Source of the DNA: Ralstonia sp. UNC404CL21Col
GTDB taxonomy: Bacteria; Pseudomonadota; Gammaproteobacteria; Burkholderiales; Burkholderiaceae
Assembly: GCF_000620465.1 (NCBI RefSeq)
Contig: NZ_JIBE01000003.1
Location: 62,001 to 126,000, forward strand
Length of the DNA stretch: 64,000 bases
Direction: 5' to 3'
Positions 11,912 through 63,480 of this stretch are shown in pieces. Both the position numbers and the translations under genes were made by a program. How positions within the stretch are numbered: the stretch's first letter is position 1; each line of letters starts with the position of its first letter. The notes beneath the pieces are model-generated. The model made no database searches. It was given only the letters and a program-made list of their open reading frames with translations, and had not been told where the DNA came from.

Positions 11912-12133
11912 CCCTGTTTCGTCCCCTGCCGGGGCCGACCTACTTTCTTTGTCTTGCCAAAGAAAGGTAGGCAAAGAAAGGCGCGCCCGAGATGGCGACT
12001 TCCCCTTGAATTTATGTAACCGGGCGGAGACGGGGAAAACTCGCTTCGCTCAGACAGTTCCCCGTCTTTTCTCCGCCCGCTTACAGAAATTCAAGGCGCC
12101 ATCAAGGGCAGGAACGTCAACGGCCAAACCGTC
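11912..12133 (+). repeat. Structured palindromic element, copy 1
   Basis: About 220 bp in the 325-bp gap between the lipoprotein and dppA-like genes. Features in order: CCCC-TGCC-GGGG; hairpin CTTTCTTTG/CAAAGAAAG (11943-11966) followed by a second CAAAGAAAG; GGCGCGCC; then a long imperfect stem. Bases 12004-12037 (CCTTGAATTT...CGGGCGGAGACGGGGAA) pair with 12058-12096 (TTCCCCGTC...CCGCCCG...AAATTCAAGG), with an apical loop containing CTCGCTTCGCTCAGACAG. Nearly the same sequence occurs inverted at 63254-63480, and a variant at 62961-63165. Confidence 0.85.
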
Positions 12134-12173
12134 TGAGCGCGAGCGTTGGCGCTGTGATGTGCTGAGCTGGCGC

Positions 12174-12989
12174 TCAGCGGAGCATCGCTGACATGGCGGA
12201 GAGGCTGTTGAGCATGCGTACGGCATGTTCTACGGAGTCGGCGGCGAAGCGCAGCATCGTGCCGTCGACGCGCTCCAGGGCGGGCCATTGGCAGAACAGA
12301 TCGGCCAATGCGGGCGTTTGCGTTTGCAGGCGGCAGACGATCGGGGCCTGGAGGCGCAGCGGCATGCTGAAATGGCCGCGCCGTACCGTGGCTTTCACCG
12401 CTGCGTAGATGGCTTCGCACGACTGCTCGGGCGAGAGCGATGTGCCGGCGTTCTGGCCTTCGGCCTGCTTGGTCTCGACAAACGTGGTGTGCGGCAGCAG
12501 CGGCTTGGTTTCCTTGATGAACACGTCGTCGCCGCTGGCCACGGCCACCGGCACACCGCGCTCGCCGGCCAGGGCGCCGTAGAGGCCGGCCTCGCCCAGT
12601 TCCTGCTCGTTGAACCACACGCGCGCAAACGCGAAGCTGTTGATGGTGTGTGCCAGCACGCCGCGGCTGCCGGCGCGCGCGTGGTAGCCGATCATGCAGA
12701 CGGCATCGCAGCCGTCCACGCCGGCCATCATGCTGAGGTAGCGCGGCTTGCCGAGGACGAAGCGTGCGCGGCGGTCGATGGAATCGGGGATGAGGTTGCG
12801 GAAACCTCCGTGCGAATCGTTGACGAGCACGTCCGTAGCGCCACCGTCGAAGGCACCACGCACGGCGGCGTCGGCTTCGGCGGTCATCCAGCGGCGGGCG
12901 CGTTCGTATTCGCCGTTGCCGGCGCGCGTCTGCTCGGGGTGGAACACGTTGGCCACGCCTTCGATGTCGGCGGAGATCAGGATTCGCAT
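12174..12989 (-). CDS. dppA: M55-family D-aminopeptidase (DppA-like)
   Basis: 271 residues. It starts MRILISADIEG with zinc ligands Asp8 and Glu10, His60 in NDSHGG, His103 in GYHARAG and Glu133, matching the ligand set of Bacillus subtilis DppA (D8, E10, H60, H104, E133). Such enzymes are zinc decamers that cleave D-amino acids such as D-Ala from the N-terminus of peptides. It is the last gene of the minus-strand operon that carries a peptide importer, so imported peptides with D-residues, for example from peptidoglycan, are a likely substrate. Confidence 0.9.
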   Translation of the reverse strand: MRILISADIEGVANVFHPEQTRAGNGEYERARRWMTAEADAAVRGAFDGGATDVLVNDSHGGFRNLIPDSIDRRARFVLGKPRYLSMMAGVDGCDAVCMIGYHARAGSRGVLAHTINSFAFARVWFNEQELGEAGLYGALAGERGVPVAVASGDDVFIKETKPLLPHTTFVETKQAEGQNAGTSLSPEQSCEAIYAAVKATVRRGHFSMPLRLQAPIVCRLQTQTPALADLFCQWPALERVDGTMLRFAADSVEHAVRMLNSLSAMSAMLR

Positions 12990-12998
12990 GAGGTCAGG

Positions 12999-14024
12999 TC
13001 AGAGCAATTCGGTCAGTGCGCGGCGCGTGTTGCCGTCGCGGCCGGTGACGGCTGTTGCGTGGAACAGCGCGTGCACGATGGCTTGTTCGACGCTGTCGGC
13101 GGCCGCCTGGAACAGCGGGTCGAGGTGCGATTCGTGCGTCATGGCGACGGCCGGCATGGCGCGGCTGCCTTCGTGCGGCACCGTATAGGCAGTGGAGAAC
13201 GCCAGCGCGATGTCACCGCTGCCGTGACCGAACACGGACCCGGTGCGTGCCAGGCCCGCGCCTGCGCGCAAGGCGAGGCGGCGTAGCTGGCGTGCATCCA
13301 GCGGTGCATCGGTAGCGAGCAGCATGATGATCGAGCCCTTCTCGGGCGCCGGCGTGCCGGCGGCCAGCGCTTTTGCCAAGTCCGCACCGACGTTGCGCCC
13401 TGCAAGCGTCAGGTTTTCCGTGACGCCAAAGTTGGACAGCACCAGCGCGCCCACCGTGCGTTGCGTGCCGTCAGTAAGCGCCACCACGCGCGACGCAGAA
13501 CCGATGCCGCCCTTCACGCCGAACGACGACATCCCGCGCCCTGCCCCGACCGCGCCCTGCTCAAACGCTTGGGCCGCCGCCGCGTAGGCCGCGTCGTAGT
13601 GCACGTCCTGCACGGCAAACGCCTGCAGGTCGTTCAGGTAGCCGTCATTGCATTCAAAGACGAGCGGATTGACGGTGGACCATGCGCGGCCGATCTGCGG
13701 ATTGGCGGCAACCGCCTGACGGATCTGCGCTTGCGCCACAGCGCCCACGGCAAACGTGTTGGTCAGCGCAATCGGCGTTTCCAGCACGCCGAGTTCGTCC
13801 ACCTGCACGAGGCCGATGCTCTTGCCGAAGCCGTTGAGCACGACGCTGGCGGCTGGCACCTTGTCGAGGAACGGGTCGCCGGAGTGCGGGCGCACCACGG
13901 TCACGCCGGTCTGGATGTCGCCGCCGGCAATCGTTGCGTGGCCGACCGTGACGCCGGCCACGTCGGTGATGCTGTTGCGTGTGCCGGCCGGAAGCGTGCC
14001 GATGGCAGGAAGGCGGATCGGCAT
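12999..14024 (-). CDS. P1-family (DmpA/BapA-like) aminopeptidase
   Basis: 341 residues. An N-terminal nucleophile hydrolase that matures by self-cleavage. The expected processing site is Gly230-Ser231 in EKGSIIMLLATDAPL, equivalent to Gly249-Ser250 of Ochrobactrum DmpA, and Ser231 becomes the nucleophile. NITDVAGVTVGH-like N-terminus (NSITDVAGVTVGHATI) and FECNDGYLND are also typical. Family members cleave L- or D-amino acid amides/esters or beta-amino acid peptides. The start codon follows the permease stop by one base (TGATATG), indicating translational coupling. Confidence 0.92.
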   Translation of the reverse strand: MPIRLPAIGTLPAGTRNSITDVAGVTVGHATIAGGDIQTGVTVVRPHSGDPFLDKVPAASVVLNGFGKSIGLVQVDELGVLETPIALTNTFAVGAVAQAQIRQAVAANPQIGRAWSTVNPLVFECNDGYLNDLQAFAVQDVHYDAAYAAAAQAFEQGAVGAGRGMSSFGVKGGIGSASRVVALTDGTQRTVGALVLSNFGVTENLTLAGRNVGADLAKALAAGTPAPEKGSIIMLLATDAPLDARQLRRLALRAGAGLARTGSVFGHGSGDIALAFSTAYTVPHEGSRAMPAVAMTHESHLDPLFQAAADSVEQAIVHALFHATAVTGRDGNTRRALTELL

Positions 14025-14025
14025 A

Positions 14026-14925
14026 TCAACGGCGGTCGATCTTCGGGTCCAGCGCGTCGCGCAGGCCGTCGCCCAGCAGGTTGAACGCCAGCACGGTCAG
14101 GAAGATAGCCAGGCTCGGGAAGATCGCCACGTGCGGCGCCGTCACCATGTCGGCGCGCGCCTCGTTGAGCATCGCGCCCCACTCCGGCGTGGGCGGCTGT
14201 GCGCCCAGGCCCAGGAACGAAAGGCTGGCAGCGGTGATGATCGAGGTGCCGATCCGCATCGAGAAGTACACGACGATGGACGAAATCGTGCCCGGCAGGA
14301 TGTGCCGCATGATGATCGTCCAGTCCGATGCGCCGATGCTGCGTGCGGCTTCCACATACGTCAGGTGCTTGAGCATGAGCGTATTGCCGCGCACCAGCCG
14401 CGCAAACGCCGGAATGCTGAACACCGCCACGGCAAAGATCACGTTGATCATGCCGTTGCCCAGGATGGCCACGATGCCGATGGCCAGCAGGATGCCGGGA
14501 AAGGCGAACAGCACGTCGGAAATGCGCATGACGATGCGGTCCCACCAGCCTTCGTAGTAGCCGGCCAGCAGGCCGAGCATGGTGCCCACGATGGCGCCGA
14601 TGATGACCGACACGAAGCCCGCTTCCAGCGAGATGCGCGTGCCCATCAGGATGCGGCTGAAGATGTCGCGGCCCAGCGAGTCGACGCCAAACCAATGCTG
14701 CGCCGACGGCCCCGCGTTGAGCGCGTCGTAGTCGAAATAGTTTTCCGGGTCGAACGGCACGATGTGCGGCGCGAGAATGGCGATCAACACCAGCGCGATC
14801 ACGAACACACCGGCGCCCATCGCCAGATGCTGCTTGCGGAACTTGCGCCAGAACTCCGTCCACGGGGTGCGGACGGGTTCGGTGGCGGCTTGCGGTGCGA
14901 CCGCCTGGCTTGCGGCTTGGGTCAT
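14026..14925 (-). CDS. gsiD: Peptide ABC transporter permease GsiD/DppC-like
   Basis: 299-residue inner-membrane permease. It has an N-terminal OppC_N segment with one helix ([20 protein letters not shown]), then [14 protein letters not shown]. Five further helices follow with the EAA loop [23 protein letters not shown] that contacts the ATPase. It pairs with the gsiC product encoded 10 bases upstream. Together with GsiA and GsiB it forms an importer of the dipeptide/oligopeptide/glutathione type. Confidence 0.93.
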
Positions 14926-14935
14926 GGCGGCCTCC

Positions 14936-15859
14936 TTACTTCTTGTAGCGGATGGTGGGGTTGATGACGGTGTACAGCATGTCCACCACGAGGTTGATCA
15001 GGATGAACTCCAGCGAGAACAACAGCACCTCGGCCTGGATGACCGGGTAGTCGCGCATCTCCACCGCATCTACCAGCAGGCGCCCGAGACCCGGCCAGTT
15101 GAACACCTTCTCCACGACGATCGAGCCGCCCAGCAGAAAGCCGAACTGCAGACCCATCATCGTCACCACCGGGATCATCGCGTTGCGCAGGCAATGCTTG
15201 ATGACCACCACCGTCTCGCGCACGCCCTTGGCACGGGCGGTGCGCACGAAATCTTCCTGCAGCACTTCCACGAACGATGCACGCGTGAAGCGCGCCATCA
15301 CGGCGGCCACGGCCGCGCCCAGCGTGAGCGAAGGCAGGACGTAGTGCTTCCAGGTATCCGCGCCGATGGACGGCAGCCAGCCGAGCTGCACCGAGAACAC
15401 CTCCATCAGCAGCATGCCCAGTGCGAACGCGGGGAACGAAATGCCCGACACGGCGAGCGTCATGCCCAGACGGTCGGGCCACTTGTTGCGCCACACGGCG
15501 GATGTGATGCCGATCACCATGCCGAAGATCACCGCCCACACCATGCTGGTGATCGTCAGGTTGAGCGTCGGCCAGAAGCGTTCGCCAATCTCTTCGCTCA
15601 CCGGGCGCTTGGTGCGGATGGAGTTGCCGAATTCACCGCGTGCGGCGTTGGCGAAGAAACGCACGAACTGCTCGTGCATCGGCTTGTCCAGGCCCAGGTC
15701 CTTGCGTACGAGATCGACCGTCGTCTCGTCGGCTTCGGGGCCGGCGGCCAAACGCGCCGGGTCGCCGGGCAACAGATGCACGAACAGGAACACCAGCACT
15801 GCCACGATCAGCAGCGTCGGGATCACGCCCAGCACACGTTTAATGAAATAGTTCAGCAT
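14936..15859 (-). CDS. gsiC: Peptide ABC transporter permease GsiC/DppB-like
   Basis: 307 residues with six predicted membrane helices. It starts [19 protein letters not shown], a hallmark of DppB/GsiC permeases. It has [17 protein letters not shown] and an EAA-loop equivalent [24 protein letters not shown]. It is the partner of GsiD. A strong GC hairpin without a T-run separates it from the upstream gsiB gene. Confidence 0.93.
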
Positions 15860-15888
15860 GGCAAATCCACCGCAGGCGGCATTTCAAT

Positions 15889-15912
15889 GGCCCGCGCAAG
15901 GCTGCGCGGGCC
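15889..15912 (-). promoter_or_regulatory. Intercistronic hairpin between gsiB and gsiC
   Basis: A perfect ten-base-pair stem GGCCCGCGCA/TGCGCGGGCC with a four-base loop lies 17 bases after the gsiB stop and 30 bases before gsiC. It lacks a T-run, so it is not a classical terminator. In other importer operons such hairpins protect the upstream mRNA and raise binding-protein level relative to permease; that role is inferred here. Confidence 0.6.
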
Positions 15913-15928
15913 GGTACGGCAATGAGGC

Positions 15929-17494
15929 TTACTGCTTGACGTCGATGTCGTCGAAGCTGAACGAACCGTCCGGCGCCACGTAGGCACCCGACAGACGCTT
16001 CGAACGTGCGTAGACGATCTTCTCCGTCACCAGGAAGGCCCACGGTGCGTCTTCCCAGATGCGCTTCTGCGCGTCGGTGTAGAGCTTCGACTTCTCTGCG
16101 CGATCGGTCGTGCGCAGCGCGCCGGCGATGTCGGCATCGACCTGCTCGTTCTTGTAGTACGCCGTGTTGAACGACTTGGGCGGCATGGCTTCCGATGCCA
16201 GCAGCGGACGCAGCGCCCAATCCGATTCACCCGTCGACGACGACCAGCCTGCGTAGTACATGCGCACGCCGGCGTCTTCCGGCTTCGGCACGCTTTCGAC
16301 GCGCTCGACGCGCTGGCCGGCTTCCAGCGCCAGCACCGACGCCTTGATGCCGACCTGCGCCAGTTGCTGCTGCACGAACTGGATGATCTTCTGCGCCGTC
16401 GTGTGGTTGTAGGCCGACCACAGTTGCGTCTCGAAGCCGTTCGGGTAGCCCGCTTCCTTCAGCAGCTCTTTCGCCTTGGCCGGGTTGTACGGCCACGGGC
16501 CCAGCTTGACGGCGTAGTCCACGCCCGGCGGCACCACACCTTCAGACGGCACGGCGTAGCCCGCAAACGCCACCTTGGTCAGCGCATCCTTGTTGATGGC
16601 GTAGTTGATTGCCTGACGCACCTTGGGGTTGTCGAACGGCTTCACGTTGGTGTTGAAGCTGACATAGCGCTGGATGATCGACGGCGCTGCAATCAGGTCA
16701 ACCTTCGGGCTGCTCTTGAGCACCGCGGCCTGCTCGAACGGAATCGTGAACGCAAAGTCGGCTTCGCCCGTCTGCATGACGGTGGCGCGCGTGTTGTTGT
16801 CGACCACCGGCTTCCAGGTGATGGTGTCGATCTTCGGCAGGCCATGCTTCCAGTAGCCGTCGAATTTCTTGCCCTTCAGGTAGTCGGTCTGCTTCCATTC
16901 GACAAACTCGAACGGGCCGGTGCCGACCGGGTGGAAGGCGATGTCCTTGCCGTACTTCTTGAGTGCCGTGGGCGAAATCATGGCCGCCGACGGGTGCGCC
17001 AGCACGTTGATGAACGGCGAGAACGGCTCCTTGAGCGTCACGCGGGCGGTATACGGATCGACCACTTCGGTCTTCGCCACGCGGTTGAACAGCACGAAAC
17101 GCTTGAGCTTGTTGGCCGGGTCCGTCACGCGGTCCAGGTTGGCCTTGACGGCGGTGGCGTCAAACGTGGTGCCGTCGTGGAACTTCACGCCCTTGTGCAG
17201 CTTGAACGTGTAGACCAGGCCGTCCTTGCTGACGTCGTAGCTGTCGCACAGCACGTTGACCAGCTTCATGTCCTTGTCGAAGCCGAACAGGCCTTGATAG
17301 AACGACTTGGCGGCGCTGAACGACAGCGTGTCGTTGGCGTCGTACGGGTCCATCGTGGTGAAGGTCGAGTAGACCGCCATCACGGCGTCCTTGGCGGCAA
17401 AGGCCGGCATGGTGAATGCCGCCAGGGCCAGGCCGCTGGCAACCATGGCTGCGCGCGGGCCGAATGCGACTCGGTGGGCAAAGCGATTGAACAT
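15929..17494 (-). CDS. gsiB: Peptide ABC transporter periplasmic binding protein GsiB-like
   Basis: 521 residues, SBP family 5. The signal peptide covers [11 protein letters not shown]...[19 protein letters not shown], followed by [21 protein letters not shown], typical of glutathione/dipeptide-binding proteins. [18 protein letters not shown] and [20 protein letters not shown] are family landmarks. The ATG at 17494 is chosen because AGGAGG lies about six bases upstream; an in-frame ATG at 17509 overlaps that site. It captures the ligand for GsiC/GsiD. Ligand may be glutathione or small peptides. Confidence 0.92.
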
Positions 17495-17543
17495 TTCCTT
17501 CCTCCTCATCAAAGATGACGTCTCACTGCGTTCTGTATTGCGA

Positions 17544-19433
<1,890 letters not shown>

Positions 19434-19466
19434 GACAAATCTCCTGCTGTCCTGCTTCGCTGCTTC

Positions 19467-20429
19467 TTACCGATAGATCGACACAACCGGCGCCTGCGCG
19501 CCGCGTGCGAACCCGCGGTACATCCCTTCGGTGTTGAACGGCAACGCGACGTTGCCCTGCGCGTCCACGGCAATCAGCCCGCCGCGGCCGTTGATGGCCA
19601 TCAGCTTGCGCATCACCACGTCGTCGGTGGCATCGGCCAGGGACTTGCCGGCGTATTCCATCTGCGCGGCCACGTCATAGGCGGCCACCGCGCGGATGAA
19701 CATCTCGCCCGTGCCCGTGCACGACACCGCCGCCACGTTGTTCGCAAAGCAGCCCGCGCCAACGATGGGCGTGTCGCCCACGCGGCCAACCTTCTTGTTG
19801 GTGACGCCGCCCGTGGAGGTGGCGGCCGCGAGGCGCCCTTGCGCGTCGCATGCCACGGCGCCCACGGTGCCGAACTTGTTGTCGGGGTCGATGGGGGCGG
19901 CTTCCTTGGCCATGAGCGACGCGGCATCGTGATCGAGCAGCGCCATGCCGTCTTGCTGGCGAGCGCGCTGCCATTGGGCGTAGCGCGCTTCGGTGTAGTA
20001 GTAGTCGGGCTCGACAAACTCCAAGCCCTGCGCTTTCGCAAAAGCCTCAGCGCCTTCGGAGGTGAACAATACGTGTTCGCTGCGCTCCATGACCGCGCGG
20101 GCAGCCAGGATGGGATTGCGCAGACGCTTGACGCAGGTGACTGCGCCGGCCTCCAGCGTGGCGCCGTCCATGATCGACGCATCCAGTTCGTACGTGCCGG
20201 CGCTGGTGAGCACCGCACCCTTGCCGGCGTTGAACAGCGGGCACTCTTCGAGCAGGCGCACGGCTTCGGTCACGGCATCCAGCGCGCTACCGCCATCGAC
20301 AAGGATGCGTTGCCCAGCGGCCAGGATGTCGTTCAGGGCCTGCTGGTAAGCGGCTTCCTTATCGGCACTCATGGCCGTGCGGGTGATGGTGCCGGCGCCG
20401 CCGTGGATGGCGAGGATGGGCGTAGTCAT
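19467..20429 (-). CDS. iaaA: Isoaspartyl peptidase/L-asparaginase
   Basis: 320-residue plant-type asparaginase (Ntn hydrolase). It should self-cleave before Thr188 in NKFGTVGAVA, which becomes the nucleophile (Thr179 in E. coli IaaA). Other landmarks are LAIHGGAGTI, FNAGKGAVLT, STGGVTNKKVGRVGDTPIVGAG and GTGEMFIR. It hydrolyses beta-aspartyl dipeptides and asparagine. It lies between the RpiR regulator and gsiA, consistent with digestion of imported dipeptides in the cytoplasm. Confidence 0.95.
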   Translation of the reverse strand: MTTPILAIHGGAGTITRTAMSADKEAAYQQALNDILAAGQRILVDGGSALDAVTEAVRLLEECPLFNAGKGAVLTSAGTYELDASIMDGATLEAGAVTCVKRLRNPILAARAVMERSEHVLFTSEGAEAFAKAQGLEFVEPDYYYTEARYAQWQRARQQDGMALLDHDAASLMAKEAAPIDPDNKFGTVGAVACDAQGRLAAATSTGGVTNKKVGRVGDTPIVGAGCFANNVAAVSCTGTGEMFIRAVAAYDVAAQMEYAGKSLADATDDVVMRKLMAINGRGGLIAVDAQGNVALPFNTEGMYRGFARGAQAPVVSIYR

Positions 20430-20446
20430 GCGTGGCTCGATGTAAA

Positions 20447-21436: not shown

Positions 21437-21447
21437 GTTCCTGGGCC

Positions 21448-21476
21448 GTGAAAATTTTGTGTAAATGTATTTTCAC
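21448..21476 (-). promoter_or_regulatory. Candidate operator of the RpiR regulator
   Basis: A perfect inverted repeat GTGAAAAT-N13-ATTTTCAC lies 11 bases upstream of the regulator start. A second weaker pair GTGTAAAG...CTTTCAC follows around 21486-21507. RpiR proteins bind as dimers to such A/T-rich palindromes, so this is a plausible autoregulatory site; the overlap with the regulator's promoter is inferred. Confidence 0.55.
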
Positions 21477-21676
21477 GAATCGGCCGTGTAAAGAAAAAAA
21501 CTTTCACGAAGACCTATGGTTTTCCCTAGGTCCAATGCCGCCGCACAGATTGCGGGCGAGCGCTGCTTCGGCACGGTGCAATGCACCAGTCCAAACGCCT
21601 CCGGCGCGCCAGGATCGTGCGACGCAGCACGCTACAATCGCAGCCTTCTCCGATTTGCCTTCAAGTGCAGTTTTTC

Positions 21677-53572: not shown

Positions 53573-53584
53573 CAGCGCACCGAT

Positions 53585-53615
53585 AAAAATGGCCGCAGAG
53601 CAAAACACTGCGGCC
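53585..53615 (-). promoter_or_regulatory. cysT leader with GC hairpin and CysB-like motif
   Basis: On the minus strand GGCCGCAG-N9-CTGCGGCC is followed by ATTTTTAT, 18 bases before the cysT start, like a leader terminator. About 40 bases further upstream, TTCGTTTTCGTCATAAGAACAG (minus strand) resembles CysB-bound sequences containing ATAAGAA. Roles are inferred. Confidence 0.4.
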
Positions 53616-53689
53616 GATATGCAGATGAACCGATTGTGGCGGACTGTTCTTATGACGAAAACGAATATTTGCGCATGTGCATCATCGTT

Positions 53690-54364: not shown

Positions 54365-54371
54365 GTCGTGC

Positions 54372-55256
54372 TCATTGCGTCAGAGAAAGGCCGGCCGCGG
54401 ATTGCTGCTGTTGCACCAACGGCGCCTGCGCCATTGGCACCACCTGTGGCGCGGGGGCCGCGTCTGGCTCAGCCTCCGCGCCGGGCAGGATGCTGCCCTG
54501 CACATACGTGATACCGGCGGCACGGGCCAGTTCCAGGTCGCTCGGGCGCTCGCAACGCCGCAAGGCCAGCGTGACGCCCAGCTCGCGTGCCGAATCGGCC
54601 AGCGACACCACGTTCCGCGTACGCCAATCGCGACGCGCATCGAGCTTCAGATAGGCGGGCTTGGCATGCACGAGCAGCGCGCCAGCCTCCGCCGGGTCCG
54701 ACGCCTGCACGGCGACGGCAAAACCATTGCGCCGGTAGTTGTCCACCACGAACAGCAGCAGCCCCAGATCGTCATTCGCCGTCGACGGCACCTGGATGAC
54801 GAACTGTTCCGGGTGCAGCCCCAGCGCCGTCACCGCGCGGTGAAACGCCTTGCCGTGGTCGGCCGCCACCGCTGCCAGCAACCGGCCATGCACATTGACG
54901 ACCAGCCGCCCCGCATCGGTGCGCGAGAAATAGTTGAGCGTATGCACCAGCCGGCACAGGCGGTCCAGTTCAACCAGCGTGCTGTCATCCGACGCCAGCG
55001 AAAACACCTTCCACGGGTTCAAGCCCAGCTCGCCGTCGCGCGTCCAGGTGCGCATCAGCGCTTCGTGGCCGGCGGGGGCCAGCGCGCCATCGGCGGCAAG
55101 CTGCCAGACCGGTTCAAACAGGCTGGTGAGCGCGCAGTGGAAGAACTGGCCCTGTACGCGGCCGGTGGCATCACGCCACAAGTGGCGATCTGGCGCGGGC
55201 GCATTCGGCAGCGTGCCGAGAAATTGTGCGACTGCTGTGGTGTGCATCAGGCTCAT
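54372..55256 (-). CDS. Degenerate EAL-domain protein
   Basis: 294 residues of EAL fold. The EAL triplet is kept (GHEALMR, residues 65-67), with FEPVWQLAADGALAPAGHEAL before it. The metal and catalytic residues are largely lost: the TES region reads VIQVPST, the DDFG loop reads VAVQASDP and the late Glu of AEGVE is replaced (LRRCERPSD). It is therefore probably not a c-di-GMP phosphodiesterase and may act as a ligand or partner sensor. It ends with a Pro/Gln-rich tail and sits within the sulfonate cluster. Confidence 0.85.
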   Translation of the reverse strand: MSLMHTTAVAQFLGTLPNAPAPDRHLWRDATGRVQGQFFHCALTSLFEPVWQLAADGALAPAGHEALMRTWTRDGELGLNPWKVFSLASDDSTLVELDRLCRLVHTLNYFSRTDAGRLVVNVHGRLLAAVAADHGKAFHRAVTALGLHPEQFVIQVPSTANDDLGLLLFVVDNYRRNGFAVAVQASDPAEAGALLVHAKPAYLKLDARRDWRTRNVVSLADSARELGVTLALRRCERPSDLELARAAGITYVQGSILPGAEAEPDAAPAPQVVPMAQAPLVQQQQSAAGLSLTQ

Positions 55257-55296
55257 GGGTGAGGCTCCTTGTTGGGTCGCCGTCTCCTCCCCGTCC

Positions 55297-55512
55297 TTAC
55301 AGTTTGGCGATCGAGACTTCAGTCGCCTTCACCAGCGCAACCACTTCGCTGCCGATCTTCAGGCCAAGGCTATCGACCGAGCGCGTGGTGATGACCGAGG
55401 TGACGATGCCCGCCGGCGTCTCCACGTCGATCTCGGAGAGCACGTCGCCCCGGATGATCTCCTTGATCTGCCCGCGAAACTGGTTGCGTACGTTAATCGC
55501 TTGAATGCTCAT
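55297..55512 (-). CDS. Molbindin (TOBE/Mop) protein
   Basis: 71 residues, one Mop repeat: SIQAINVRNQFRGQIKEIIRGDVLSEIDVETPAG, VTSVITTRSVDSLGLKIGSEVVALVKATEVSIAKL. Mop proteins assemble as hexamers that store molybdate or bind related oxyanions such as tungstate or sulfate. Placed between ssuB and the EAL gene; its tie to sulfur oxyanions is inferred from location. Confidence 0.93.
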   Translation of the reverse strand: MSIQAINVRNQFRGQIKEIIRGDVLSEIDVETPAGIVTSVITTRSVDSLGLKIGSEVVALVKATEVSIAKL

Positions 55513-55582
55513 GATGTTCCTTCTTAGGTGACAACGGCACTACGTGCCAATGAATGTTTTCAGGAGAAAGGTTTGCAGCGCC

Positions 55583-56422
55583 TTACACGGCCCAGCGCAC
55601 GGCGGTGGCAGACACGTCAAACGGTGATGCCCACGCCGTGTGCGGGCGCACATCGGTCACTTCATTCGGATCGATCTTGCGCTGCATCACGCGGTTGAGG
55701 ATCGCTTCTTCCAGCCGGGCAAACGCGGGCGAACCACGATGGCGCGGACGCGGCAGGTCGATGCGTTCGTCCAGCGCGATGCGGCCGTCTTCGATCAGCA
55801 CCACGCGGTCGGCCAGCGCCACCGCTTCGGCCACATCGTGCGTGACGAGCACGGCCGTAAAGCCCAGGCGCTGCCACAGGCCTTCGATCAGGTTCTGCAT
55901 GTCGATGCGGGTCAGCGCGTCCAGCGCGCCCAGCGGTTCGTCCAGCAGCAGCAGGCGCGGTCGATGCACCAGTGCACGCGCCAATGCCACGCGCTGGCGC
56001 TGCCCGCCCGACAGGCGCGCCGGCCATTCCCCTGCCCGCTCGGCCAGACCGACTTGCGCGAGCACTTCGGCGGCCTGCGCGCGCTGTGTTTTCGGCAAGC
56101 CGAGCGCGACGTTGTCGAGCACTTTCTTCCACGGCAGCAGGCGGGCGTCCTGGAACATCACGCGAGCATCGTCGTGCAGGCCGTCTTCGGCATCGCCATC
56201 GCGACGCAGGTGGCCATCGTCAATGCCTTCCAGCCCGGCGATCAGCCGCAGCAGCGTGCTCTTGCCGCAGCCGCTGCGCCCGACGATGACGACAAACTCG
56301 CCCGGGGTGATCTCCAGATCGATGCCGTGCAGCACTTCACGGTCGCCATAGCGTTTGACGACGTGCTCGATGTGCAAGGCGGTGCCGGCCAGCGCGGCGT
56401 GTTCAGTGGCGTTGCTTTGCAT
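55583..56422 (-). CDS. ssuB: Sulfonate ABC transporter ATPase SsuB
   Basis: 279 residues from ATG 56422. Walker [42 protein letters not shown] (SsuB/TauB Q-loop), [19 protein letters not shown] and [18 protein letters not shown]. It follows ssuC by 19 bases. Energises import of alkanesulfonates through SsuC. Confidence 0.94.
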
Positions 56423-56441
56423 GCGTCTCTCCAATTCAGCC

Positions 56442-57290
56442 TCAGGCCGCTGCTTGATAACCAGGGTGCCAGCGCAGCCAGAAGCGCTCCAGCGCACGCG
56501 AGAGCAGATCCGCCAGCTTGCCCAGCAGCGCGTACAGCAGGATGCCCAGCAGCACGACGTCGGTCTGCAGGAACTCGCGCGCATTCATCGTCATGTAGCC
56601 GATGCCGGCCTGCGCAGACACCGTCTCCGCCACGATCAGCGTCACCCACATCAGGCCGAGCGAAAACCGCACGCCCACCAGGATCTGCGGCAGCGCACCG
56701 GGCAGGATCACCTCGCGATACAGCTGCGCACGCGACAGGCCGTAGCTGCGGGCCATCTCCACCAGGGCCGGATCGACCGAACGGATGCCGTGATACGTAT
56801 TCAGGTAGATCGGGAAGAACACGCCCAGCGACACCAGGAACAGCTTGGCCGATTCGTCGATGCCGAACCACAGGATCACGAGCGGAATCAGCGCCAGCAC
56901 GGGAATGTTGCGGACCATCTGCAGCGTGGTGTCGAGCAGGGTCTCGGCAGTGCGGAAGGTGCCGGTCAGCAAGCCCAGCGCCAGCCCCAGCGAACCACCG
57001 ATCGCAAAGCCCAGCAGCGCGCGCCACGTGCTCACGGCCACATGCGTCCACAGCTCACCCGAGCGCGCCAGCGCCACGGCGGATTTCGCCACGTCCAGCG
57101 GTGCCGGCAGGATGCGGTTCGACAGCCAGCCCCATTGGGCCGAGGCCTGCCACAGCACCAGCAGCACAAGCGGCACGATCCACGGCGCCAGGCGTTGCTG
57201 GGCGGTGCGCAGGAAGGCGTTTGCCTTTGCCTTTGCCTTCGCCTTAGCCTTCGGTTTCGATGTTGATTTGGATTTCGACTCGGATGCCAT
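56442..57290 (-). CDS. ssuC: Sulfonate ABC transporter permease SsuC
   Basis: 282 residues with six helices. [49 protein letters not shown] is the signature of SsuC/TauC permeases. The N-terminus carries a lysine/alanine run ([14 protein letters not shown]) encoded by a near-perfect six-base tandem repeat. Starts at 57290. Confidence 0.95.
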
Positions 57291-57308
57291 CGCCCTGCTC
57301 CTCCCGGC

Positions 57309-58472
57309 TCAGCTTGCCGCCACGCGCGGCACGATGCCGGTGGCAATCACTTCGCCAAACGGGCCGTTCAGCACATTGCCCGGCAGCTTGTCGCGCACCG
57401 AGCGCGGCAACAGCGGGAACACCAGTTCGGCAAAACGGTAGGCCTCTTCCAGATGCGGATAACCGGACAGCACGAACGTATCGATGCCCAGCTCGGCGTA
57501 TTCCTGCATGCGCGCGGCCACGGTTTGCGGATCGCCCACCAGCGCCGTGCCGGCACCGCCGCGCACCAGCCCTACGCCGGCCCACAGGTTCGGGCTGATC
57601 TCCAGATCCGCACGCGTGCGCTTGACACCATTGGCATGCAGCGCGGCCATGCGCTGCTGGCCGGCCGAATCCATCTTGCGGAACGCCTCCTGCGCACGTG
57701 CGACGGTGTCGTCGTCGAGCTTGCTGATGAGCTTGTCTGCGGCAGCCCAGGCTTCATCGTCCGTCTCGCGCACGATCACGTGCAGGCGGATACCGAAGCG
57801 CACGGTGCGGCCATGCTTGGCAGCGCGCGCCCGCACGTCGGCCAGCTTCTCGGCCACGGCGGCAGGCGGTTCGCCCCAGGTGAGATAGGTGTCGACCTGC
57901 TCGGCTGCCAGTTCATGTGCTGCTTCCGACGACCCACCGAAATACACCGGGGGATGCGGCCGCTGCACGGGCGGATACAGCACCTTCGCGCCCTTCACGC
58001 TGAGATGCTTGCCGGTGTAATCCAGCGCGGCGCCTTCGTGGCTGGCCGCCAGGGTTTCGCGCCAGATGCGGATGAATTCTTCCGAGGCTTCGTAGCGTTG
58101 CGCGTGGTCCAGGAACAGGCCATCGCCGGCCAGCTCCGACGGGTCACCACCGGTGACGAGGTTCACCAGCAAGCGGCCGTTCGACAGACGGTCGTACGTG
58201 GCCGCCATGCGGGCCGCCAGCGTCGGCGCCATCAGCCCGGGGCGCACCGCCACCAGGAAACGCAGGCGCTTGGTGACGGGAATCAGGCTTGCGGCCACGA
58301 TCCACGGGTCTTCGCACGAGCGGCCGGTGGGAATCAGCACGCCCTCGTAGCCGAGCGTATCGGCGGCCACGGCCACCTGCTGCAGATAGGTTTGATCGAC
58401 CTGGCGAGCGCCCTCGGCAGTGCCGAGATAACGGCTGTCGCCGTGCGTCGGGATGAACCAGAAAACTTGCAT
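57309..58472 (-). CDS. ssuD: FMNH2-dependent alkanesulfonate monooxygenase SsuD
   Basis: 387 residues. [46 protein letters not shown]-like segment, [19 protein letters not shown] and [27 protein letters not shown] identify SsuD of the luciferase-like family. With FMNH2 from SsuE it splits alkanesulfonates to aldehyde and sulfite. Length matches E. coli SsuD (381). Confidence 0.97.
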
Positions 58473-58515
58473 GACAGCTCCTTGGACTGTGTTGTTCTCA
58501 GATCAACGCAACAAC

Positions 58516-59547
58516 TCAAGCGCGGGCGATGGCCAGTTGCGCCGGGGTCGGGTGCCAGACCAGTTCGACCGGCTTGACCGGGCGCGGAATCAGCCCCAGC
58601 CCGTGGAAGGCATCGGCCACGCGCTGCTGCTCGGCCACCGCTTCGGGCGTGACCGGCCGCACGGGCGAAGGCGGCCGACGCGACAGGAACAGATGCACCG
58701 TCGCCAGCGACAGCCCGGAGAACTCTGCAATGCGCTGCGCGGCTTCCTTGCGGTTCTCCTGCACGAGGCGATCGGCGCGCGACAGCTCTGCAAAGATGGC
58801 GGCGATGGTGTCGCCGTGCTTTTCCGTAAAGGCCGTCGGCGCGAAGTAGAACGAGTTGTTGGACGACAGCGTGCGCCCGGTGGCCAGCACGCGCGGCTTG
58901 ATCGCCAGTTCCGTGGCGGCGTAGTACGGATCCCAGATGCCCCAGGCGTCCACGCTGCCGCGCTCGAAGGCGGCGCGCGCGTCGGCCGGCGTCAGGTACA
59001 CGGGCTGGATGTCGGCAAAGCTCAGGCCGCCCTTCTGCAGGCCCCGCACGATCAGGAAATGCGCGCTCGAACCCTTCTGCAATGCCACGCGCTTGCCCTT
59101 CAGGTCGGCCAGCGTCTTGAGCGTCGAATCCTGCTGCACGAGGATGGCCGAGCTGTCCGGCTTGGGCGGCTCCACGCCGACGTAGCGCAAATCCTTGCCG
59201 GCAGCCTGCGCGAACACCGGCGGCGTATCGCCCGTGATGGCGAGGTCCAGACTGCCCGCAGACAGCGCTTCGAGCTGCTGCGGCCCGGCCGGAAACTCCA
59301 GCCAGCTGATCTTGGTGCCCGGAAAGCGCTGCTCCAGCGCCCGGTTTTCTTTCACGATGACCAGGTTGACCGCGCTCTTCTGGAAACCGATGCGCAGTTG
59401 CGCGGGCGGCGTCACCTTGGGCAAGCCTGCCGCGGCCGGGGCGGCGGTTGCGGCATTGGCAGCGTGCGCGACCGGCCCCAGCGTGGCAAGCGATGCGCCC
59501 GCCACGGTGGCGCTCAGCAGACGGCGGCGTTGGATGTCGATCGTCAT
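58516..59547 (-). CDS. ssuA: Aliphatic sulfonate-binding protein SsuA-like (1)
   Basis: 343 residues from ATG 59547. N-terminal twin-arginine-like signal (DIQRRRLLSATVAGASLATLGPVAHA). PPAQLRIGFQKSAVNLVIVKENRALEQRFPGTKISWLEFPAGPQQLEAL and IQPVYLTPADARAAFERGSVDAWGIWDPYYAA match SsuA. The gene lies five bases after the second SsuA-like gene. It delivers sulfonates to SsuBC. Confidence 0.92.
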   Translation of the reverse strand: MTIDIQRRRLLSATVAGASLATLGPVAHAANAATAAPAAAGLPKVTPPAQLRIGFQKSAVNLVIVKENRALEQRFPGTKISWLEFPAGPQQLEALSAGSLDLAITGDTPPVFAQAAGKDLRYVGVEPPKPDSSAILVQQDSTLKTLADLKGKRVALQKGSSAHFLIVRGLQKGGLSFADIQPVYLTPADARAAFERGSVDAWGIWDPYYAATELAIKPRVLATGRTLSSNNSFYFAPTAFTEKHGDTIAAIFAELSRADRLVQENRKEAAQRIAEFSGLSLATVHLFLSRRPPSPVRPVTPEAVAEQQRVADAFHGLGLIPRPVKPVELVWHPTPAQLAIARA

Positions 59548-59552
59548 GGCAA

Positions 59553-60545
59553 TCAGCGCGCGGCCTGTTGGGTGGTCGGCTGCCACGCAGCATCGGCCAC
59601 CTTGACGGGACGCGGAATCAGCTTGAGTGCGTGGAACGTATCGGCAATGCGCTGCTGGTCGGCCAGCGCCTCGGCCCCGACCGGCTGGATGCCGTAGGCA
59701 ATGCGCGACACCGAACGCGCCACCACGGCCGGCTCCAGGCCGAGCTGCGGGCCGAGAATGGTCGTCACATCCTTCGGGTTGGCCGCGGCCCAGGTGTCGG
59801 TCTTCTTCAGTTCATCCAGCACGATGTTCAGCACATCGGGCCGTGCGCCCGCATAGCCCTTCGAGGCCAGGAAGTACTGCGAGTTGTTGACCACGCCCGT
59901 GCCGTCGGCCAGCACACGCGCGCCCAGCTGCTGTTCAGCCGCGGCAAAGAACGGATCCCAGATCACCCAGGCGTCGACGGCGCCGCGCTCGAAGGCGGCG
60001 CGCGCATCGGCGGGCGTGAGGTACACAGGCTGGATATCGCTGTAAGGCACATTGGCCTTTTCCAGCAGCTTCACCAGCAGGTAATGCACGTTCGAACCCT
60101 TGTTGAAGGCGACGCGCTTGCCCTTGAGATCGGCCACGCTCTTGAGCGGCGAAGTCTTCGGCACGATGATCGCCTCGCCGGTGGGCGCAGGCGGTTGGTT
60201 GCCGACATAGACGAGATTCGCGCCGGCAGCCAGCGCGAAGATCGGCGGCGCTTCACCCGTGGTGCCGAAATCGATGGCGCCCACGTTCAGGCCTTCCAGC
60301 AATTGCGGGCCCGCCGGAAACTCGGTCCACTTCACTTCGATGCCCTGGGCGGCAAGGCGCTTTTCCAGCGTGCCGCGTGCCTTGAGCACCGTCAGCGTGC
60401 CGTATTTCTGATAGCCGATGCGCAGTTGCTTGGCAGCGGTCGGGGGCGGCGCATCGCTGTTGGCAAATGCGGCGGGCGCGCCGAGCGTGGCAAGCAGCGT
60501 GGCGGCAATGGTCAAAGTCCTGCGCAGGGGCGAATGGGTTTTCAT
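59553..60545 (-). CDS. ssuA: Aliphatic sulfonate-binding protein SsuA-like (2)
   Basis: 330 residues from ATG 60545. Sec-type signal peptide (THSPLRRTLTIAATLLATLGAPAAFA). LRIGYQKYGTLTVLKARGTLEKRLAAQGIEVKWTEFPAGPQLLEGLNVGAIDFGTTGEAPPIF is closest to E. coli SsuA. Adjacent to the paralogue above and clearly related over its whole length, indicating an old tandem duplication. Confidence 0.93.
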   Translation of the reverse strand: MKTHSPLRRTLTIAATLLATLGAPAAFANSDAPPPTAAKQLRIGYQKYGTLTVLKARGTLEKRLAAQGIEVKWTEFPAGPQLLEGLNVGAIDFGTTGEAPPIFALAAGANLVYVGNQPPAPTGEAIIVPKTSPLKSVADLKGKRVAFNKGSNVHYLLVKLLEKANVPYSDIQPVYLTPADARAAFERGAVDAWVIWDPFFAAAEQQLGARVLADGTGVVNNSQYFLASKGYAGARPDVLNIVLDELKKTDTWAAANPKDVTTILGPQLGLEPAVVARSVSRIAYGIQPVGAEALADQQRIADTFHALKLIPRPVKVADAAWQPTTQQAAR

Positions 60546-60662
60546 GGCAAGTTCGGTCGATGCGGGGTGTATGGGCGGCACGATCCGCGCGCAGCGGCTG
60601 CGCGGCGTGACAACAACGGGAAAGCAGTGAGCGGCGTGTGTAACGGCGGCGCGGTCAGCGCA

Positions 60663-61286
60663 TCACGCCAGACATCGCATTCGTTCTTCGTCGGCGGCCT
60701 GGAACGTGGCACGCACCGCGCTGCGGCTCGAAACGATGACCTGCGCCACGGCCGGATGCCGTGCCAGCGCCAGCGCCTGATGCACGCGCTCCACGCCGTC
60801 ATCCAGGCGCTGCTGCAGCGACGGGTCAACGGTCACGCCGTCATCTGCCACAACGATCTGCGAGTCGACTGCAAAGATGCCCGGCAGGATCGAGCGCGCC
60901 GCCAGCGCCGTCAGCACGGGACGCAGCGCGTAGTCGATCGCCAGCGTGTGGGCGAGGCTGCCGCCGGTGGCAATCGGCAGCACGACCTTGTCGCGCAGCC
61001 CGCTCTGCGGCAGCAGATCAAGAAACGTCTTGAGCAGCCCGCTGTAGGCCGCCTTGTAGACCGGCGTGGCAAGAATCACCACGCCCGCCGCTTCCACCCG
61101 CGCCACCGCATCGGCGATGGCGGGGTCGGACACTTGCGCGCCGAGCAGCGCGTCGGCCGGAAGGCTGCGCAGGTCCAGGTGGTCCGCCTGCTCGCCGGCG
61201 CGTTCGAGCTGCGCACGCACGTGGCCCAGCAGGCGTGCAGATCGCGATTGCGCCGAAGGGCTGCCGGAAATCGTCAGGATTTGCAT
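60663..61286 (-). CDS. ssuE: NADPH-dependent FMN reductase SsuE
   Basis: 207 residues from ATG 61286. Flavodoxin-like fold: ILTISGSPSAQSRSARLLGHV binds FMN phosphate, and VVILATPVYKAAYSGLLKTFLDLLPQSGLRDKVVLPIATGGSLAHTLAIDYALRPVLTAL is the SsuE signature. It supplies FMNH2 to SsuD. Confidence 0.95.
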   Translation of the reverse strand: MQILTISGSPSAQSRSARLLGHVRAQLERAGEQADHLDLRSLPADALLGAQVSDPAIADAVARVEAAGVVILATPVYKAAYSGLLKTFLDLLPQSGLRDKVVLPIATGGSLAHTLAIDYALRPVLTALAARSILPGIFAVDSQIVVADDGVTVDPSLQQRLDDGVERVHQALALARHPAVAQVIVSSRSAVRATFQAADEERMRCLA

Positions 61287-61323
61287 GATGCGGATCACCC
61301 GATGTCGTTACGTCGTGTGGGCC

Positions 61324-62331
61324 TTACTTGCCCGGTTGATAGAGCTGATCGAACTGCCCGCCGTCGGCAAAGTGCGTCTTTTGCGCCTTCTGCCAGCCGC
61401 CGAACGTGTCGTCGATGGTCACGAGCTTCACCTTCGGGAATTCGCTCTCGTGCTTCTTGGCCACGGCCGGGTCCGTCGGGCGATAGAAGTTCTTCGCACC
61501 GATCTCCTGCCCTTGCGTCGTGTACAGGAACTTGAGATAAGCCTCCGCGGCCTTGCGCGTGCCCTTCTTGTCGGCCACCTTGTCCACCACCGCCACCGGC
61601 GGCTCGGCCAGGATGGAAATCGACGGCACCACCACGTCAAACTTGTCCTTGCCTTCCACGCGCGCCGCCAGCAGCGCCTCGTCTTCCCACGCGATCAGCA
61701 CGTCGCCGATACCGCGCTCGGTAAAGGTGGTGGTCGCACCGCGCGCGCCCGAATCGAGCACCGGCACGTTCTTGTAGAGCTTCTGCACGAAATCCTTGGC
61801 GGTGGCGTCCGAACCGCCCGGCTGCTTCAGCGCATAGGCCCAGGCGGCCAGGTAATTCCAGCGTGCACCGCCGGAGGTCTTCGGATTCGGCGTGATGACG
61901 GCGATGCCCGGCTTGACCAGGTCATTCCAGTCCTTGATGCCCTTCGGGTTGCCCTTGCGTACCAGGAAGACGATGGTCGACGTGTACGGTGAGGCGTTGT
62001 GCGGCAGGCGCTTCTGCCAGTCCTTGCCGGTCAGGCCCTTCTCGGCGATCGCGTCGATGTCGTAGCCCAGCGCCAGCGTCACCACATCGGCATCCAGCCC
62101 GTCGATCACGGAGCGCGCCTGCTTGCCCGAACCACCATGCGAAGCGCGCAGGGTGATGTCCTCACCCGTTTCGGCCTTCCACTTCTTGGCAAATTCGGTG
62201 TTGATTTCCTTGTACAGCTCGCGCGTCGGGTCGTACGACACATTCAACAGTGTCGTTGCCGCATGCGCACCCACGGTTCCCCCCGCCACGATGGCAGCCG
62301 CGATGGTATTGAACACAAACTTGCGAATCAT
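61324..62331 (-). CDS. sbp: Periplasmic sulfate-binding protein Sbp
   Basis: 335 residues with a signal peptide ([20 protein letters not shown]). [63 protein letters not shown] and [20 protein letters not shown] are Sbp/CysP motifs that hydrogen-bond sulfate. Starts the minus-strand sulfur run; likely serves CysTWA. Its promoter should lie just upstream in 62332-62450. Confidence 0.96.
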
Positions 62332-62509
62332 CTTGCAGCTCCGTTTCTGATCTCTGATGGATTTGGAATAGGAGCAAGACTACCGAGCGGGTCTTGTACG
62401 GGGAACGAATGGTTTCAGGGAATGTTCATCGTTTTTTGCATAAAGGCGGGGTTGGGGGCTGCGCGGATGCAAAGCAAAGGGCCGCGAGCGGGCGTGCGGG
62501 CGTGGTGCT

Positions 62510-62880
62510 TGAGGGTCAAACCCTCGGCGCTGGATGTCGGAGACTCGAGCTTGGGCCTTGGACAGCGGGACTCCAGGGGTTTGGGGTGGAGGTCGGGCCT
62601 TGGAGAGACGTTGGGTCGACTGTTTTTGGGTGGAGCTTGAGGGTTGGAGGGTGGAACTTGAGGGTTTTAGGGTGACGCTTGAGTGTTGGAGGGTCGAGAT
62701 TGAAGGTTTGGGGGTGGAGGTTGGGTCTTTGGGGGTGGAGCTTGAGGGTTTTAGGGTGGAGTTCGGGGCTTGGAGGGTGGAGCTTGAGGGTTTTAGGGTG
62801 GAGTTCGGGGCTTGGAGGGTGGGACTTGAGGGTTTTAGGGTGGGGCTTGGGTCTTAGACGGTGGGGCTTGAGGGTTTTGG
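62510..62880. repeat. Second 21-bp tandem repeat array, different consensus
   Basis: G/T-rich on the plus strand. Core TTGAGGGTTTTAGGGTGG and variants (TCGGGGCTTGGAGGGTGGA) recur every 21 bases. Two exact 42-bp copies lie at 62734-62775 and 62776-62817, showing recent duplication of a two-unit block, with a diverged third copy following. Several frames stay open and give heptapeptide repeats of type LEGFRVE and FGAWRVE on plus and HPKTLKL on minus; not accepted as genes. Part of the 1,240-bp gap between sbp and clpB. Confidence 0.88.
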
Positions 62881-62960
62881 GGGCGCGGGGGGGGAGTGTC
62901 AGGATTTCGGTGTTCAAAAGGGGCTTCCTTGCCGGTTTTTTTGGTGGTGGTGGATCCCTT

Positions 62961-63165
62961 GTTTCATCCCCTGCCGGGGCTGACTCACTTTCTTTGTCTT
63001 GCCAAAGAAAGTAAGCAAAGAAAGGCGCGCCCGATGCGGCGACCCCCTCCTTGAATTTATGTCGCAAGGAGGGAGGGGAGGCAAACTCGCTGCGCTCAGA
63101 CAAGCCTCCCCTCTTTTTCCTCCTTGCAACAGAAATTCAAGGCGCCGCATAGGGCAGGGAGAAGC
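62961..63165 (+). repeat. Structured palindromic element, copy 2 (stem sequence variant)
   Basis: Same design as copy 1: CCCC-TGCC-GGGG, the CTTTCTTTG/CAAAGAAAG hairpin with a second CAAAGAAAG, GGCGCGCC, then outer pairs GATGCGGCG/CGCCGCAT and CCTTGAATTT/AAATTCAAGG. The inner stem, however, is GCAAGGAGG..GAGGGGAGGC against GCCTCCCCTC..CCTCCTTGC instead of the CGGGCGGAGACGGGG type, so both strands of the stem changed together. Confidence 0.82.
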
Positions 63166-63253
63166 CAAACCATCGATCACCTGTGCAGCAGGCACCAACA
63201 GCACAACGCGAAGCAAAGCGAGCAACACCAGCAGCAAACCAGTGCCACCCAGG

Positions 63254-63480
63254 CCAGCACACCGACGGTGTGGCCGTTGACGTTCCTGCCCTTGATGGCG
63301 CCTTGGATTTTTGTAAGCGGGCGGAAAAAAGACGGGGAACTGTCTGAGCGCAGCGAGTTTTCCCCGTCTCCGCCCGGTTACAAAAATCCAAGGGGAAGTC
63401 GCCATCTCGGGCGCGCCTTTCTTTGCTTACTTTCTTTGGCAAGACAAAGAAAGTGAGTCGCCCCCGGCAGGGGGTGAAAC
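63254..63480 (-). repeat. Structured palindromic element, copy 3 (inverted)
   Basis: Reverse-oriented copy, nearly identical to copy 1 and facing copy 2 about 90 bp away. In copy 3 the outer stem is CCTTGGATTTTTGTAA with TTACAAAAATCCAAGG, where copy 1 has CCTTGAATTTATGTAA with TTACAGAAATTCAAGG: the A-T pair became G-C on both sides. The flank GGCAGGAACGTCAACGGCC is shared with copy 1. Confidence 0.85.

What the first reader, a model, noticed from the sequence alone, without database searches (positions are those of the whole stretch)
11912..63480. Three copies of a ~215-bp element whose stems change together (covariation)
Copies at 11912-12133 (+), 62961-63165 (+) and 63254-63480 (-) share unpaired blocks (CTTTCTTTG, GGCGCGCC, CTCGC..GCTCAGACA) but differ in paired blocks in a compensated way. 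The inner stem is CGGGCGGAGACGGGG-type in copies 1 and 3 and GCAAGGAGG..GAGGGGAGGC-type in copy 2. The outer stem is GAATT/AATTC in copy 1 and GGATT/AATCC in copy 3. A further pair is GATGGCG/CGCCATC versus GATGCGGCG/CGCCGCAT. This is what a selected RNA (or cruciform) structure leaves behind, not a neutral repeat. I do not know a named family for it.
Basis: seen in the sequence. Interest (0 to 1): 0.8.

Follow-up and report, generated by a model that had tools for sequence, protein, structure and literature searches.

The report
Ralstonia intergenic hairpins with swapped stems
About sixty copies of an unnamed 200-base hairpin element sit between genes in this probable Ralstonia genome; their stems are swapped between copies as matched pairs of arms, and two copies that face each other nearly always carry different stems, which suggests a folded element at the ends of genes whose neighbours must not match.

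Summary
The three copies belong to an intergenic family with at least 60 members in this genome and matches in all 15 same-genus genomes searched. No Rfam family matches; four stretches of its sequence were not found in the paper library.

Each copy has three hairpins: CCCC/GGGG, CTTTCTTTG/CAAAGAAAG and a long one of about 113 nt. In 247 of 255 copies the inner stem has at most one mismatch in nine pairs. Columns co-vary by pairing far more than by distance.

At orthologous sites stems are often replaced whole, both arms together, from a shared pool. So much of the covariation is cassette swapping with few broken chimeras, not pair-by-pair mutation.

New rule: in inverted tail-to-tail pairs the two copies carry different stem classes (18 of 19 here; 58 of 69 overall, about 35 expected). 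A second genus shows the same at 7 of 7 parsed sites.

Most likely function: a transcript-end hairpin with T5 on one strand (197 of 255). RNA or DNA is not settled.

The parts
11905..12112 (+). copy 1, a single element; head near the start of a small lipoprotein-like gene (11483-11848, - strand), tail facing the 3' end of the gene at 12174-12989 (- strand)
   Evidence: same place and orientation in relatives L041, L042, L045, L047, L133, L158 (L190 and L197 are second views of the genomes of L041 and L042)
11923..11934 (+). C-hairpin CCCC-TGCC-GGGG of copy 1
   Evidence: its outer pairs vary together across copies
11939..11971 (+). AAAG hairpin CCTACTTTCTTTG / CAAAGAAAGGTAGG of copy 1
11991..12103 (+). 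long hairpin of copy 1 (GATGGCG ... CGCCATC)
   Evidence: fold z -7.7 (whole element); pair counts
12028..12067 (+). inner stem and conserved loop CTCGCTTCGCTCAGACA of copy 1 (stem allele AGACGGGGA)
12067..12072 (+). T-rich run on the 3' arm only (TTTTCT in copy 1; T5 in 197 of 255 copies)
62948..63159 (+). copy 2, left member of an inverted tail-to-tail pair between the 5' end of a sulfate-binding-protein-like gene (61324-62331, -) and the 3' end of a clpB-like gene (63573 on, -)
   Evidence: gene names are my reading of the translations, not a family search
63033..63150 (+). long hairpin of copy 2 (GATGCGGCG ... CGCCGCAT), outer module CGCAAGGAGG (63063-63072), inner module GAGGGGAGGC (63073-63082)
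63114..63118 (+). T5 run directly after the inner stem of copy 2
63160..63284 (.). spacer between the facing tails of copies 2 and 3
63285..63493 (-). copy 3, right member of the pair; stem class opposite to copy 2 (AACCGGGCGG with AGACGGGG)
63294..63406 (-). long hairpin of copy 3 (GATGGCG ... CGCCATC, GGATT/AATCC)
63325..63330 (-). T6 run after the inner stem of copy 3 (A6 on the + strand)

Best explanation
This is an old family of intergenic elements that mark transcript ends. Shown: each copy is a chain of three hairpins, and the long one keeps its two arms complementary although its stem sequence differs from copy to copy. Shown: most copies stay at the same gene junctions across the genus while many of their stems are replaced as whole cassettes. 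Inferred: replacement is by gene conversion between copies in one cell, and chimeras with unmatched arms are removed by selection. Inferred: on the + strand the inner GC-rich stem followed by U5 ends transcription, and the long hairpin shields RNA 3' ends on either strand. Shown: two copies placed tail to tail nearly always carry different stem classes. Inferred: matched partners would make a long near-perfect inverted repeat and are lost, so diversity of stems is kept.
For: Structure: among 21 variable pairs mean normalised mutual information is 0.70, against 0.44 for 26 unpaired column pairs at most 2 nt apart (p 0.005) and 0.09 for 2398 unpaired pairs at matched distance; shuffled and slid controls. 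Broken inner stems (2 or more mismatches) 3.1% of 255 copies versus 68% when right arms are dealt out anew; outer module 1.2% versus 51%. Cassette exchange: 75 of 84 cluster-by-locus comparisons hold the same number and orientation of copies, yet stems often differ with both arms changed together; one outer module occurs with many inner modules. Arm-to-arm copying is unlikely as the driver, because asymmetries persist: T5 on the 3' arm in 197 of 255, no A run opposite in any of 255, a T-C mismatch in 25 copies. Transcript ends: of 36 classified own sites 16 are convergent, 19 co-directional, 1 divergent, against 15, 60 and 39 in 114 gaps of 200-1000 bp without the element. Partner rule. Two of six element-free orthologous sites keep clear head remnants, as loss of a pair would leave.
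Against: No transcript or termination data. The terminator scanner finds nothing at the inner stems because its loop limit is 8; the loop here is about 17-20 nt. In co-directional singles of this genome the + strand lies antisense to the genes (7 versus 1; G005 2 versus 0; but G007 1 versus 2; ortholog groups 12 versus 5, p 0.14), which a simple terminator role does not predict. The clpB-like gene has its own canonical terminator before copy 3, and 11 of 33 own copies with a gene 3' end at their head have another terminator candidate before or at the head. A-C mismatches outnumber G-T on the + strand (74 versus 42 cells in 243 distinct hairpins), the opposite of what + strand RNA selection alone would give. 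In relatives the convergent bias is weaker (G007 5 convergent, 10 co-directional, 2 divergent; G005 2, 7, 0; in the smaller set 1, 9, 2). One stem type of the second genus has TTCAT instead of a T run. Four of six element-free sites show no clear remnant, so loss is not the only possible history.
Confidence: 0.47

Rival explanations
1. Parasitic, non-autonomous mobile hairpins of the REP or MITE kind: spread in the past by a transposase acting on folded single strands, structure kept because the enzyme needs it, orientation and place set by what the host tolerates.
For: About 60 dispersed intergenic copies, heads close to stop codons, few divergent promoters; such an origin was argued for pneumococcal BOX, RUP and SPRITE (PMC3049150, abstract); four of six element-free orthologous sites have no clear remnant of the element, so some could be sites never occupied.
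Against: 75 of 84 orthologous comparisons hold the same number and orientation of copies; two of six element-free sites are scars; the only Y1-transposase-like match in the genome has no element within its 3.3-kb locus. Terminal repeats and target duplications were only looked for by eye in the and 37 outputs and none was recognised.
Confidence: 0.24
2. A DNA-level element: cruciforms or hairpins on single-stranded DNA that bind a protein (nucleoid, gyrase or replication-linked), with transcription irrelevant.
For: No wobble excess on the + strand; the partner rule fits avoidance of long inverted repeats in DNA, since in genome G486 direct neighbours share stems (5 of 5) while inverted neighbours differ (7 of 7) among the copies parsed.
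Against: The one-sided T run and the placement at gene 3' ends are transcript-like features.
Confidence: 0.2
3. Arm-to-arm repair: when the palindrome folds during replication, one arm is copied onto the other, so arms match by mutation alone and no selection is needed.
For: Would explain matching arms and two-sided changes in any long palindrome (general knowledge, no call).
Against: It would erase the T bulge and the internal mismatches, which persist in most or many copies.
Confidence: 0.07

Closest known systems
REP / BIME elements with TnpA-REP (RAYT)
   Same: many intergenic palindromes, often in alternating orientation (PMC2817692, abstract start)
   Different: REPs are 20-40 bp (PMC3733652, abstract start); here one hairpin alone is about 113 nt with two more in front, and no RAYT was found beside a copy in this genome
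BOX, RUP and SPRITE repeats of Streptococcus pneumoniae
   Same: structured intergenic repeats nearly limited to close relatives (PMC3049150, abstract)
   Different: no sequence comparison was made; stem swapping and the partner rule were not looked up beyond the abstract
Enterobacterial RU-1 (127 bp), RU-2 (168 bp), RU-3 (103 bp) repeats
   Same: similar length, intergenic, MITE-like (PMC2759123, abstract)
   Different: other hosts; no sequence or layout comparison was made
Intrinsic (Rho-independent) terminators
   Same: GC-rich stem, median -16.5 kcal/mol, followed by T5 in 197 of 255 copies
   Different: loop of about 17-20 nt, embedded in an outer hairpin that closes over the T run

Membership tests
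REP/BIME | palindromes of 20-40 bp | tested here: not met
   long hairpin about 113 nt inside an element of about 200 nt
REP/BIME | associated RAYT transposase next to repeats | tested here: not met
   one PF01797 match in the genome, no element motif in its 3297-bp locus
REP/BIME | GTAG or CGTC tag at the foot of the palindrome | not tested
   -
MITE | terminal inverted repeats and target-site duplication | tested here: inconclusive
   six element-free orthologous sites compared with the head: two clear scars, the other four without a clear remnant (five of them printed); no duplication recognised by eye
Known structured RNA family | Rfam covariance model above its gathering score | tested here: not met
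   0 matches in the window; 12 of 13 below-threshold matches around copies 2 and 3 are microRNA models
Intrinsic terminator | GC-rich stem directly followed by a T run | tested here: met
   T5 in 197 of 255, median inner hairpin -16.5 kcal/mol
Intrinsic terminator | short loop (3-8 nt in the scanner) | tested here: not met
   searches report none at the inner stems
Intrinsic terminator | transcripts end at the T run | not testable with these tools
   no RNA data
Protein-coding repeat | overlapping ORFs match protein families | tested here: not met
   0 families for 5 overlapping ORFs in Pfam and in NCBIfam

The most novel reading that the evidence does not exclude
Stem class works as a compatibility tag. 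Each gene junction may hold hairpins from a pool of interchangeable stem cassettes shared by the whole genus, but two facing hairpins must come from different classes, so neighbouring copies cannot pair with each other. If so, this is a natural set of mutually non-pairing hairpins, kept orthogonal over a genus by exchange between copies and loss of matched pairs, and the same rule evolved or was kept with wholly different stems in a second genus.
Probability: 0.35. Interest if true: 0.8.

Novelty: new variant of a known kind. Interest (0 to 1): 0.64.

Why it matters
Covariation in repeats is usually read as pair-by-pair compensation. Here it can be seen to arise largely from exchange of whole stems among some 60 copies per genome with pairing kept, which gives a natural test of selection on structure: linkage follows pairing rather than distance. 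The rule that facing copies carry non-matching stems was not met in any of the listings or texts seen here. It makes a testable link between inverted-repeat instability and sequence diversity of repeats. The family fills dozens of gene junctions per genome in the genus, and no curated library searched here names it.

Tried and rejected
Rfam at gathering and relaxed thresholds: nothing credible. Four stretches of element sequence as text in papers: 0 papers; keyword searches on repeats, stem-loops, Ralstonia, Burkholderia and gene conversion listed no paper on this family (listings only); the word 'Ralstonia' does not occur in the main text of PMC2267715, PMC3733652 or PMC12306157. RAYT association: not supported. 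Coding: not supported. Phage records: no match; plasmid records: 2 partial matches, both to the head region. Orientation bias of co-directional singles looked strong in the raw table (41 versus 12 elements) but fell to 12 versus 5 ortholog groups, p 0.14, so it is not claimed. Head differences between partners: C-hairpin identical in 5 of 58 pairs versus 13.7 expected (p 0.0004; own genome 1 of 19 versus 4.1, p 0.047), but AAAG hairpin 18 versus 21.7 and whole head 5 versus 7.2 are not significant. My first reading that all element-free sites are scars did not hold: the head gives a clear match in L060 and L067 only; L164 and L096 are weak (1 of 300 and 12 of 300 shuffles as good in the better orientation); L159 and the second site in L198 show none. 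For that reason confidence in the best explanation was lowered from 0.50 to 0.47 and the mobile-element rival raised from 0.20 to 0.24. Pattern scans: the class-wide one hit only the own genome in 274 genomes sampled evenly over the class, only 2 others of them from the own order; the order-wide one had a spacing error of mine and is void (it misses the own genome). One search had loci turned wrongly and parsed nothing; both were redone. In one search the grouping of orthologous pairs merges some distinct sites. The 84 comparisons include some loci from the same genome. Genes are from my own hexamer script, not an annotation; by it 0 of 54 own copies and 3 of 211 copies in all overlap a gene.
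Full report
What is there. The window most likely lies in a Ralstonia genome: a 29-base piece of the element occurs in at least 109 stretches of named genomes (the scan stopped at its limit), and the 80 rows shown are all Ralstonia or an unnamed Burkholderiaceae bacterium. BLAST, a hairpin pattern and a loop pattern place at least 60 copies in this genome: 56 by the hairpin pattern, one with a degenerate loop at C3:1214515, three more at C3:745338, C3:745554 and C3:1380458, and one or two interrupted by N on C10. All 15 same-genus genomes among 61 searched have matches (17-31 each, with 37-71 first-look candidates); of the 45 genomes of other genera 6 had any, all weak.

Anatomy, in the + orientation of the element: a small C-hairpin (CCCC-TGCC-GGGG and variants); the AAAG hairpin (CTTTCTTTG/CAAAGAAAG) with a further GCAAAGAAAGG; GGCGCGCCC; a long hairpin closed by GATGGCG/CGCCATC or GATGCGGCG/CGCCGCAT, then a bulge of variable sequence on the 5' arm, CCTTGAATT/AATTCAAGG, an outer variable module, a T-rich run on the 3' arm only, an inner variable module and the conserved loop CTCGCTKCGCTCARACA; then AGGGC. 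From there to a gene's stop codon it is 50-70 bp in 17 of 26 ortholog groups of single copies with a gene 3' end at the tail; heads lie at most 40 bp from a stop codon in 41 of 56 groups with a gene 3' end at the head (my counts on the lists).

Is the covariation real? On 60 copies picked for diversity from 204, 97.4% of cells pair, 25 of 52 pairs have changes on both sides, covariation score 0.263; 500 shuffles average 0.108 and slid structures 0.043-0.073. On 255 copies, 21 variable pairs have mean normalised mutual information 0.70; 26 neighbouring unpaired column pairs 0.44 (p 0.005); 2398 distance-matched unpaired pairs 0.09. Since relatedness would favour neighbours, linkage that follows pairing rather than distance is hard to explain by descent alone. 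The inner stem has 0 or 1 mismatch in 247 of 255 copies; 2 or more in 3.1%, against 68% when right arms are dealt out anew. A few clear chimeras with unmatched arms exist (L067, L078, L079 and others), so broken stems do arise and are rare.

How the stems vary. Flanks of 500 bp were matched between own sites and fetched loci (identities 71-99%, mostly above 80%). In 75 of 84 cluster-by-locus comparisons the same number and orientation of copies is found; 6 comparisons have none and 3 have one fewer, one of these with 81 N in the stretch. At these shared sites the inner stem is often a different member of a shared pool, both arms at once. Orthologous copies share the inner module in 23% of 199 comparisons and non-orthologous ones in 10% of 7802 (outer module 41% and 15%). 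The same outer module occurs with many inner modules. I read this as gene conversion among copies with purging of mismatched products; the conversion itself is inferred. Members of the pool differ by single compensated pairs (AGACGGGG, AGGCGGGG, AGATGGGG and AGGTGGGG each differ by one or two), so pair-by-pair compensation also happened, but earlier or rarely. Copying of one arm onto the other within the palindrome is disfavoured because the T run stays one-sided (T5 in 197 of 255; no A run opposite in any) and some mismatches recur.

The partner rule. Of 39 own clusters, 18 are inverted tail-to-tail pairs; C3:745338/745554 is a 19th. In 18 of these 19 the two outer modules belong to different classes (xACC versus CGC). 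Over 69 unique pairs from all loci of the genus 58 differ and 11 are of the same class, where shuffling gives 34.2 of the same class on average (lowest of 10,000: 19); no pair has identical outer and inner modules. After grouping by flanks 17 of 19 groups with a majority are of the 'different' kind, p 0.0007. Orthologs of single copies change class in 14 of 43 comparisons, members of pairs in 7 of 53 (Fisher p 0.027); in 24 comparisons with both members read, 20 are still of opposite class. In genome G486, another genus of the family with 33 full-length matches and quite different stems and loops, inverted neighbours are of types A and B at 7 of 7 sites where both were parsed, in either order, while direct neighbours are of the same type in 5 of 5 (recent tandem amplification could explain the latter). 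Avoidance in inverted but not in direct orientation fits selection or instability against long inverted repeats better than avoidance of RNA mispairing. Of six element-free orthologous sites two keep clear pieces of both heads, as deletion between inverted copies would leave; two are weak and two show nothing.

Function. By my gene of 54 own copies and 3 of 211 copies in all overlap a gene. Of 36 classified own sites 16 lie between convergent, 19 between co-directional and 1 between divergent genes, whereas 114 gaps of 200-1000 bp without the element split 15, 60 and 39 (window and one relative). Sampled sites in G007 (5, 10, 2) and G005 (2, 7, 0) are less convergent, as is the small set (1, 9, 2). 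On the + strand the inner stem (median -16.5 kcal/mol) is followed by T5; a relaxed terminator test finds such a site in 33 of 33 own copies that have a gene 3' end at the head, and in 13 of 18 on the other strand for tail-facing singles, where the hits look weak. Of 16 own pair centres examined, 7 hold a terminator-like hairpin on the + strand, 11 on the - strand, 6 on both. Against a plain terminator stand the antisense position of most co-directional singles in this genome, the clpB-like gene's own terminator, and more A-C than G-T mismatches (74 versus 42). I therefore hold 'transcript-end element' at just under 0.5 and structure under selection higher.

Wider family. The model of the element matches 78 of 200 genomes of the family, in 9 of 25 genera, at E up to 1e-4, the 16 genomes of the own genus included; outside G486 the matches read are mainly the head (C-hairpin plus AAAG hairpin). 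A Variovorax plasmid copy has the AAAG hairpin followed by AACTCGCTTCGCTCAAACA between stem-like sequences, downstream of an ABC-transporter gene. A Paraburkholderia plasmid copy has the head only.

Known kinds. It resembles REP/BIME, enterobacterial RU and BOX repeats as a class, and is a member of none by the tests made. Of papers I saw listings, word counts with passages or none in three, and two abstracts with outlines.

Noticed in passing
window 62600-62900: A long GT-rich stretch of imperfect repeats (GGGTGGAGCTTGAGGGTTTTAG-like) lies between the sulfate-binding-protein-like gene and copy 2; other imperfect repeat tracts lie beside or between copies in L016, L020, L048 and L051.
   Followed up: no
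L246, L303, L304, L306 (genome G486): Tandem arrays of two or three direct copies of one stem type, ended by one inverted copy of the other type where the end was parsed.
   Followed up: partly
L031, L011, L014, L018, L024 (pair centres): Several inverted pairs hold a terminator-like hairpin readable on both strands (AAGGCCAACC...GGTTGGCCTT with T-rich tails) between the facing tails.
   Followed up: partly
L161 (G000:C6:96817-97113): One Y1-transposase-like (PF01797) match in the genome, with no copy of the element in its locus.
   Followed up: yes
L035:1852-2077 (C3:1214863): A copy whose loop carries its own extra mini-hairpin (GGCCC-TAAA-GGGCC), like the loops in genome G486.
   Followed up: no
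cluster 8 in L126: An orthologous site where the + copy keeps its head and its AGGGC tail but lacks the long hairpin.
   Followed up: no
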